Shown: positions 3,315 to 28,628 of the stretch, one piece after another | Numbering within the stretch: the first letter of the stretch is position 1 | How the letters are laid out: every line of letters starts with the position of its first letter | Assembly (NCBI GenBank): GCA_005882895.1 | Contig: VBBD01000022.1 | Location: 1 to 34,883, forward strand | Source: Candidatus Bathyarchaeota archaeon | GTDB lineage: Archaea > Thermoproteota > Bathyarchaeia > 40CM-2-53-6 | DNA: 34,883 nt | Direction: 5' to 3' | Made by a program: the position numbers and the translations under genes | Notes under the pieces: model-generated | Database searches by the model: none | Told to the model about the DNA's origin: nothing | What the model saw: the letters and a program-made list of their open reading frames with translations, nothing else

Positions 3315-3501
3315 GGGGCCGTAGTCTAGCCAGACCCATCGAAAGCGCGGGGTCCTAGAAAGGAATGACGACGGGCTCCAGAATCCATTACAACAGGACA
3401 TACCGACCTAAATTGAGGGATGAGGAAATTCAGGAGCGCGTGAAGATACCCGTAGACGAGAGACTCGGCGGATGTCGTGGGTTCGAATCCCACCGGCCCC
3501 A
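3315..3501 (+). tRNA. tRNA-Trp(CCA) with three introns (3332-3360, 3382-3447, 3456-3473); CCA encoded at 3502-3504
   Basis: Acceptor GGGGCCG/CGGCCCC, T-arm GTGGG-TTCGAAT-CCCAC. Removing the three inserts gives GGGGCCGTAGTCTAGCCAGGAATGACGACGGGCTCCAGACCCGTAGGTCGTGGGTTCGAATCCCACCGGCCCCA (74 nt) with stem ACGGG/CCCGT and loop CTCCAGA. Introns 1 and 3 fit bulge-helix-bulge geometry. Confidence 0.85.
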
Positions 3502-3593
3502 CCAAAGTGGCGACGAATCCTGCAGACTTAAGTCCGGCTTTCGTCCTTGTTGTTCGATGACGTAGTATTGGTAGGGTGCAAGATCGTTGGTGA

Positions 3594-28249: not shown

Positions 28250-28306
28250 CTAATGCTCTGGGCTGACAAAAAGGGTAATAGACTATGAGTCAGAGTCCCG
28301 GACGAT

Positions 28307-28472
28307 GCTCCGGTGGTGTAGCCCGGTTTAGCATAGCGGCCTTAGCCCGACAATGAAGCTCGGGTGGCCATTCGAGCGAATAACCAGCCAGCGGCGGAGA
28401 ATCGAAACCTCCAGAGCCGTTGATCGCGGGTTCAAAAGCGGTCGTTTGCCGCGGAGAGTCCCGCCCGGAGCA
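28307..28472 (+). tRNA. tRNA-Glu(TTC) with three inferred introns (28344-28371, ~28376-28415, ~28436-28457); CCA encoded at 28473-28475
   Basis: Acceptor GCTCCGG/CCGGAGC, D-arm GTGTAGCCCGGTTTAGCAT, stem GCGGC/GCCGT, T-stem GCGGG/CCCGC. Removing inserts gives a 76-nt tRNA with loop CTTTCGA. Intron 1 fits BHB (central helix GGCC/GGCC, bulges TTA and ATT, inner helix GCCCGA/TCGGGT). Intron 2 borders are inferred only from the mature consensus. Confidence 0.82.
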
Positions 28473-28479
28473 CCATCAC

Positions 28480-28590
28480 GCGGGGGTACCATAGCCAGGT
28501 CAAATGGGCAGAGGGTCACTGGAAAGCACCCGCCTAGGGCTTAGGACCCTGTGGCGAAGGCCTTCGTGGGTTCGAATCCCACCCCCCGCA
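28480..28590 (+). tRNA. tRNA-Leu(TAG) with one intron (28512-28537); CCA encoded at 28591-28593
   Basis: Acceptor GCGGGGG/CCCCCGC, long variable arm, T-arm GTGGG-TTCGAAT-CCCAC. BHB: central helix GGGC/GCCT, bulges AGA and AGG, inner helix GGGT/ACCC; splicing restores CAGGG-CTTAGGA-CCCTG. Confidence 0.9.
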
Positions 28591-28628
28591 CCACTTGAGC
28601 CAAACCTTCCAAAAAACTCTATTCAGAA

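What the first reader, a model, noticed from the sequence alone, without database searches (positions are those of the whole stretch)
28307..28475. tRNA-Glu with three introns, including one inside the T-loop
Intron 1 splits the anticodon (34/35) with near-perfect BHB geometry. An intron of ~40 nt lies at about 37-38/39. A 22-nt intron (AAGCGGTCGTTTGCCGCGGAGA) with a GCGG/CCGC hairpin interrupts the T-loop. The first intron breaks the TTC anticodon itself, so decoding depends on splicing. Loop sequence TTTCGA can pair with TCGAAA in intron 2, hinting at ordered or structure-dependent splicing.
Basis: seen in the sequence. Interest (0 to 1): 0.75.

Follow-up and report, generated by a model that had tools for sequence, protein, structure and literature searches.

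The report
Glutamate tRNA gene broken by introns
A soil archaeon's only detected gene for the glutamate tRNA that reads GAA codons is interrupted at three places, and one interruption looks like an intron inside an intron, so the cell must cut and paste this RNA in a fixed order before it can use it.

Summary
Window 28307-28475 (+) is a tRNA-Glu(UUC) gene with encoded CCA, in a Bathyarchaeia soil MAG. Twelve of 17 other congeneric genomes carry orthologues with the same two long anticodon-loop insertions. The exon between the first two introns is 3 nt (TCG). Spliced exons give the exact 76-nt tRNA seen uninterrupted, piece by piece, in relatives.

In 13 genomes its 3' end has 0-1 of 4 required pairs with C32-U35, against 3-4 of 4 for every other intron. 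It does fit a nested pair: a 13-nt inner intron on its own bulge-helix motif, whose removal recreates an ordinary 37/38 intron. That predicts a fixed order.

Two congeners have introns at four sites; the literature I could read gives a maximum of three. The genome encodes an (alpha-beta)2-type splicing endonuclease. Three-intron tRNA-Glu(UUC) and order-dependent nested introns are already described: a new variant of a known kind. No RNA data were available.

The parts
28266..28282 (+). Putative promoter element (ACAAAAAGGGTAATAGA), TATA/BRE-like
   Evidence: Similar ACAAAAAGGTAAAAGA stretch at a similar distance upstream in many of the orthologues; inference, no transcript data
28307..28343 (+). 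Exon 1, tRNA positions 1-34 (ends with the first anticodon base U34)
   Evidence: Identical in the congeneric orthologues with the same introns; ARAGORN on spliced RNA
28344..28371 (+). Intron 1 at 34/35, 28 nt
   Evidence: Central helix GGCC(29-32)/GGCC, 4 of 4 pairs, 6-bp inner helix; helix probability 0.96 in the whole precursor; absent in G002, G003, G007, G011, G018, G020, G038
28372..28374 (+). Micro-exon TCG, tRNA positions 35-37 (anticodon bases 2 and 3 plus position 37)
   Evidence: Comparison with relatives lacking the flanking introns
28375..28401 (+). Outer part of intron 2 (2a) at 37/38, 27 nt; carries GCGGC (copy of anticodon-stem strand 27-31) and GGAG-AA
   Evidence: GGAG pairs C32-U35; this pairing is standard in all 13 genes; same RRRG-NN end as simple 37/38 introns in G002 and G038
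28402..28414 (+). Inner nested intron (2b), TCGAAACCTCCAG, 13 nt
   Evidence: BHB GCGGC-GGAG-AA|T / CTCC-AG|A-GCCGT; helix probabilities 1.00 in the whole precursor; shuffles 0 of 2000; both-side changes in 3 of 4 central pairs across genomes
28415..28436 (+). Exon, tRNA positions 38-59
   Evidence: Comparison
28437..28458 (+). T-loop intron at 59/60, 22 nt
   Evidence: Central helix UUCA(54-57)/GGAG 3 of 4 pairs, 5-bp inner helix, outer helix = T stem; absent in G017, G020, G021, G027, G038
28459..28475 (+). Last exon, positions 60-73 plus encoded CCA
   Evidence: Acceptor stem closes with exon 1
28480..28593 (+). Neighbouring tRNA-Leu(UAG), same strand, with a 26-nt intron at about 29/30
   Evidence: BHB splice search with ARAGORN check; co-located in G013, G001, G012, G009, G015, G006, G014

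Best explanation
This is a working tRNA-Glu(UUC) gene, the only one detected in its genome, whose transcript is assembled by the archaeal tRNA splicing endonuclease (an (alpha-beta)2 enzyme) and an RNA ligase from four exon pieces, one of them only 3 nt long. Shown by sequence comparison: introns at 34/35, 37/38 and 59/60. Inferred from structure and covariation: the 37/38 intron is two nested introns removed in order. First the inner 13 nt leave, using a BHB in which the intron's own copy of the anticodon-stem strand (GCGGC) pairs with exon 39-43, and intron 1 leaves using exon 29-32. Only then do C32-U33-U34-U35 become contiguous and the GGAG-AA end come next to A38, so the remaining outer intron can form the ordinary 37/38 BHB and be removed last. 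The T-loop intron leaves independently.
For: Spliced RNA is a full cloverleaf. Exons are 75-76 of 76 identical in the congeners with these introns while introns differ, and individual introns are missing in relatives. Every non-composite intron at any site shows 3-4 of 4 central pairs (shuffle mean 1.76), but all 13 long 37/38 introns show 0-1 of 4 when cut in one step. The nested reading gives 4+4 central pairs in 11 of 13 (0 of 2000 shuffles for this gene once the outer helix is included). The inner central helix has both-side changes at 3 of 4 pairs (G-C to A-U, A-U to G-C) and sliding the register destroys it; CUUU/RRRG is 100% paired; the direct pairing is 2.8%. The unconstrained fold of this precursor contains both the intron-1 and inner-intron helices with probability 0.96-1.00. 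The genome encodes a catalytic alpha subunit with Tyr/His/Lys and a loop lysine region aligned with the A. pernix enzyme, plus a second divergent subunit.
Against: No RNA evidence. In the fold after removal of the other introns the outer 37/38 helix is not favoured (probability 0.0, penalty 7.4 kcal/mol), although simple 37/38 introns used as controls behave the same (4.6-7.6 kcal/mol). In four of 13 genomes (G005, G017, G016, G008) the inner motif is energetically poor, and in G017 its central helix has only 2 of 4 pairs. Only nine distinct rows support the covariation, and they are related. The assembly is 86.6% complete, so a second gene could be missing.
Confidence: 0.68

Rival explanations
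1. Three ordinary introns, the 37/38 one being a single 40-nt intron removed in one step by relaxed recognition without a BHB central helix.
For: (alpha-beta)2 endonucleases with the loop lysine accept relaxed motifs (PMC6379350); four of 13 orthologues fit the nested motif poorly by energy.
Against: 0-1 of 4 central pairs in all 13 genes while every other intron in the same genes keeps 3-4; covarying GGAG/CTCC-type helix inside the intron; the GGAG-AA end matches simple 37/38 introns of relatives.
Confidence: 0.25
2. A decaying pseudogene, with an intact tRNA-Glu(UUC) elsewhere doing the work.
For: Assembly is incomplete (86.6%).
Against: Exons 75-76 of 76 conserved across species whose introns have diverged; no second UUC gene recognised here or in 92-95% complete relatives G005, G012, G014, G016, G017 (a few weaker partial hits there were not all inspected, the inspected one, L059, is the CUC gene); compensatory changes inside introns.
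Confidence: 0.03
3. Assembly or binning artefact.
For: Single MAG contig.
Against: The same gene structure occurs in 12 other genomes, including named public MAGs BA_2, BA_3, BA_4, BA_7, BA_22, BA_23 and BA_25.
Confidence: 0.01

Closest known systems
[quoted passage not shown] islandicum (PMC4390854)
   Same: Same isoacceptor (the Glu case), three introns in one archaeal pre-tRNA
   Different: Those are Thermoproteales; here a soil Bathyarchaeia genus, a composite 37/38 intron, and congeners with four sites. Intron positions of the Pyrobaculum gene could not be read here
Nested multimeric introns in archaeal pre-tRNAs (Sugahara 2007; Tocchini-Valentini 2009, as cited in PMC3978253)
   Same: The last intron can form its BHB only after the others are removed
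   Different: Here the inner intron lies at the 3' end of another intron and uses an intron-borne copy of the anticodon-stem strand. The originals were not held, so an identical case cannot be excluded
T-loop introns at 59/60 in tRNA-Glu of Nitrosocaldus, Nitrososphaerales, Aenigmatarchaeota and other Bathyarchaeia
   Same: Same position, same TTCAAA|...|TCCCGC layout
   Different: None of substance; the T-loop intron alone is ordinary
Cyanidioschyzon merolae multi-intron tRNAs (PMC3978253)
   Same: Several BHB introns per tRNA removed sequentially, 37/38 last
   Different: There the motifs can fold independently; here they depend on each other

Membership tests
Archaeal BHB tRNA intron | 3-nt bulges around a 4-bp central helix at each splice pair | tested here: met
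   Introns 34/35 (4/4), 59/60 (3/4); nested 2b (4/4) and 2a (4/4). Not met if the 40-nt intron is treated as one unit (0/4)
Archaeal BHB tRNA intron | Splicing endonuclease able to cut relaxed motifs encoded in the genome | tested here: met
   Alpha (C14) and beta (C18) subunits, PF01974 + PF02778; alpha keeps YEHG/DHAP/VRKQ and the loop lysine region of A. pernix EndA 3p1z. Enzyme activity itself not tested
Archaeal BHB tRNA intron | Precise excision and exon ligation in vivo | not testable with these tools
   No RNA reads available
Multi-intron archaeal tRNA (Thermoproteales kind) | Two or three introns in one tRNA gene with conserved mature sequence | tested here: met
   Three sites here, up to four in G004 and G005
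Nested, order-dependent tRNA introns | Later BHB cannot form until an earlier intron is removed | tested here: inconclusive
   Sequence logic and covariation support it; order itself not observable
Split or trans-spliced tRNA | Halves encoded at separate loci | tested here: not met
   All exons contiguous and in order within 169 nt
Group I intron | Self-splicing core of about 200 nt or more | tested here: not met
   Introns of 22-40 nt; no Rfam group I match in the window

The most novel reading that the evidence does not exclude
A BHB intron nested inside another BHB intron, carrying a copy of the anticodon-stem strand as a decoy so that splicing runs in an enforced order, in a tRNA with a 3-nt micro-exon holding two anticodon bases; in congeners G004 and G005 the same gene carries introns at four sites (five introns counting the nested one), above the maximum of three per tRNA stated in the reviews and the tRNAscan-SE 2.0 paper read here.
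Probability: 0.5. Interest if true: 0.68.

Novelty: new variant of a known kind. Interest (0 to 1): 0.5.

Why it matters
Heavily interrupted tRNA genes are usually described from hyperthermophilic Thermoproteales. Here one soil genus shows the full range for a single tRNA whose mature sequence barely changes: one intron site (G003, G007) up to four sites (G004, G005), plus an apparent nested intron. That makes intron gain, loss and enforced splicing order testable within close relatives. It also shows that standard tRNA finders can miss such a gene.

Tried and rejected
TTTCGA/TCGAAA pairing as an ordering device: not conserved, not in the fold. Intron 2 at 38/39: excluded by variable flanking bases. 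One-step cleavage of the 40-nt intron: no central helix. Removing 2a before 2b: leaves TCGAAACCTCCAG with no motif (CUUU against CTCC, 0 pairs), a dead end. My automated intron finder failed on this gene because it does not model nesting, but worked for the neighbouring Leu and, tentatively, the Trp gene. The original papers on multi-intron pre-tRNAs (Sugahara 2007, Tocchini-Valentini 2009, Soma 2013) are not in the library. One viral-contig query was mis-specified and not repeated.

Full report
WHAT IS THERE. The stretch 28307-28475 on the + strand starts with a tRNA acceptor strand (GCTCCGG) and ends with CCGGAGC-A-CCA. ARAGORN and Rfam at gathering score find no tRNA at this place. Removing three internal stretches gives a 79-nt RNA that ARAGORN reads as tRNA-Glu(ttc) with all four stems. 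The window lies on contig C65 of a 1.97-Mb, 92-contig genome, 86.6% complete. Related public records with the same gene are soil Bathyarchaeota MAGs (BA_2, BA_3, BA_4, BA_7, BA_22, BA_23, BA_25), so the organism is placed in class Bathyarchaeia; its own name was not shown.

EXACT SPLICE SITES. Searching 60 relatives with the gene and cutting out each orthologue gives a series in which single introns are present or absent while the mature tRNA stays nearly the same. G003 and G007 have neither anticodon-loop intron and read GGCCTTTCGAGCCGT directly; G017, G020, G021, G027 and G038 have an intact T-loop (TTC[A/G]AAT). From these, the introns of the window are: 34/35, AGCCCGACAATGAAGCTCGGGTGGCCAT (28344-28371); 37/38, AGCGAATAACCAGCCAGCGGCGGAGAATCGAAACCTCCAG (28375-28414); 59/60, AGCGGTCGTTTGCCGCGGAGAG (28437-28458). 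Between the first two lies a 3-nt exon, TCG (positions 35-37), so two of the three anticodon bases sit on a micro-exon. Twelve congeneric genomes besides this one have both the 34/35 intron and a long 37/38 intron. In ten of them the spliced exons are 76/76 identical to the window's and in two (G014, G017) 75/76, although the whole genes are only 74-92% identical where they align.

IS IT THE ONLY COPY. The exon-1 pattern with up to three mismatches and the whole-gene search each find one place in the genome. A search for the Glu 3' end finds one other Glu gene, tRNA-Glu(CUC) on C80, itself with D-arm and T-loop insertions. No second UUC gene was recognised in the congeners, several of them 92-95% complete; a few weaker partial hits there were not all read, and the one inspected (L059) is the CUC gene. 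With an incomplete assembly this is strong but not final.

THE 40-NT INTRON IS COMPOSITE. In an archaeal BHB intron the four exon bases ending two bases before the 5' cut pair with the four intron bases ending two bases before the 3' cut. I counted this for all 57 introns in 23 genes. The 44 introns at 34/35, 53/54, 59/60, 70/71 and the four short 37/38 introns all have 3 or 4 of 4 pairs (shuffled introns average 1.76). Of the 13 long 37/38 introns twelve have 0 of 4 and one has 1. They therefore cannot be cut in one standard step. Each, however, contains a four-base RRRG word followed by AA or AG, as at the end of a simple 37/38 intron (AAGG-AA in G038, GAGG-AG in G002). In the window this is GGAG-AA, followed by TCGAAACCTCCAG. 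GGAG pairs with CTCC just before the 3' cut, the preceding GCGGC pairs with GCCGT (exon positions 39-43), and the unpaired bases on either side are AA|T and AG|A: a BHB whose 5' strand lies entirely within the intron. Excising TCGAAACCTCCAG puts GGAG-AA next to A38, and GGAG then pairs with C32-U35, an ordinary 37/38 motif. The nested model gives 8 of 8 central pairs in 11 of 13 genes; for the window no shuffle of 2000 did as well once the outer helix was included.

COVARIATION AND FOLDING. Across nine distinct rows the inner central helix has both-side changes at three of four pairs, and moving the register by 1-3 bases drops pairing from 91% to 33-54%. The second-step helix is standard in every row, with only one-sided changes because C32-U35 never varies, so that helix has no covariation support of its own. 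The one-step helix is paired in 2.8% of cells. Unconstrained folding of the full precursor of the window gives the intron-1 central helix at 0.96 and both inner-intron helices at 1.00. Weak points: in G005, G017, G016 and G008 the inner motif folds poorly, and the outer motif is disfavoured by 3-9 kcal/mol, which is also true of the simple 37/38 introns used as controls.

ORDER. The outer motif needs C32-U35, which is contiguous only after intron 1 is gone, and needs GGAG-AA next to A38, which is so only after the inner intron is gone. If the outer part left first, TCGAAACCTCCAG would have no partner. The order {intron 1, inner intron} then outer intron is therefore predicted; the T-loop intron is independent. 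This is inference, not observation.

ENZYME. Two endonuclease genes are found. The C14 protein has both Pfam domains, matches the Aeropyrum pernix-type catalytic subunit 3p1z (E 1.7e-43) over its whole length, keeps the YEHG, DHAP and VRKQ motifs and aligns a KPKP stretch with the loop whose lysine gives broad specificity in A. pernix (PMC6379350; that 3p1z is the A. pernix enzyme is from my own knowledge). The C18 protein is divergent and lacks those motifs. This fits an (alpha-beta)2 enzyme, the type known to cut relaxed motifs.

RELATIVES WITH MORE. G004 and G005 carry introns at 34/35, 37/38 (composite), 53/54 and 59/60: four sites, and five introns if the 37/38 one is nested. G017 lacks the T-loop intron and has one at 70/71 in the acceptor stem. 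G011 and G018 have 53/54 plus 59/60, leaving a 6-nt exon TTCAAA. Texts read here give a maximum of three introns per archaeal tRNA (PMC4033280; PMC4390854; PMC8450103).

COMPARISON WITH THE KNOWN. Three-intron tRNA-Glu(UUC) is known from Pyrobaculum calidifontis (PMC4390854). tRNAscan-SE 2.0 already iterates because one intron may have to be removed before another motif forms (PMC8450103), and nested multimeric introns are mentioned with references I could not open (PMC3978253). T-loop introns in tRNA-Glu also occur in Nitrosocaldus and other archaea. So the kind is known. The composite 37/38 intron with a decoy stem strand, the 3-nt micro-exon and the four-site congeners are the unusual parts. 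A library search for Bathyarchaeota together with tRNA introns returned one paper, which does not describe this; that is weak evidence of absence.

Noticed in passing
window 3316-3504 (+): A tRNA-Trp(CCA) gene with three predicted introns (D-loop 29 nt, a 66-nt anticodon-loop intron, and an 18-nt intron in the variable region). Splice sites are predicted only by BHB scan plus ARAGORN; the 5' end is approximate.
   Followed up: partly
L153 (G012), L154 (G014), L156 (G005), L165 (G017), L166 (G003); degenerate in L155 (G013), L157 (G010), L159 (G015), L169/L171 (G004): A LAGLIDADG homing-endonuclease gene (PF14528) lies just upstream of tRNA-Trp in about nine of 18 genomes, broken by stops or frame changes in several. 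In G012, G013 and G014 it is flanked upstream by a truncated 5' copy of tRNA-Trp holding one D-loop intron type, while the intact tRNA downstream has a different D-loop intron. This looks like a mobile cassette that swaps the 5' part of the tRNA and its intron, a possible route for tRNA intron gain.
   Followed up: partly
window 28480-28593 (+): tRNA-Leu(UAG) directly downstream of the tRNA-Glu, with a 26-nt intron at about 29/30; missed by ARAGORN without the intron option.
   Followed up: partly
G000 contig C80, minus strand, around 35789-35899 (locus L102): tRNA-Glu(CUC) of the same genome appears to carry a D-arm insertion and a T-loop intron at 59/60, so both Glu isoacceptors are interrupted.
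   Followed up: no
L040 (G017), within about 1500-1680: tRNA-Glu(UUC) with a 32-nt intron at 70/71 in the 3' acceptor strand, an 11-bp inner helix and a perfect central helix, and no T-loop intron.
   Followed up: partly
L060 (G029): tRNA-Glu(UUC) in a more distant relative has an insertion around the D arm (GCATTAAAAAAGCATCGAAAGCAT) plus a 34/35 intron.
   Followed up: no
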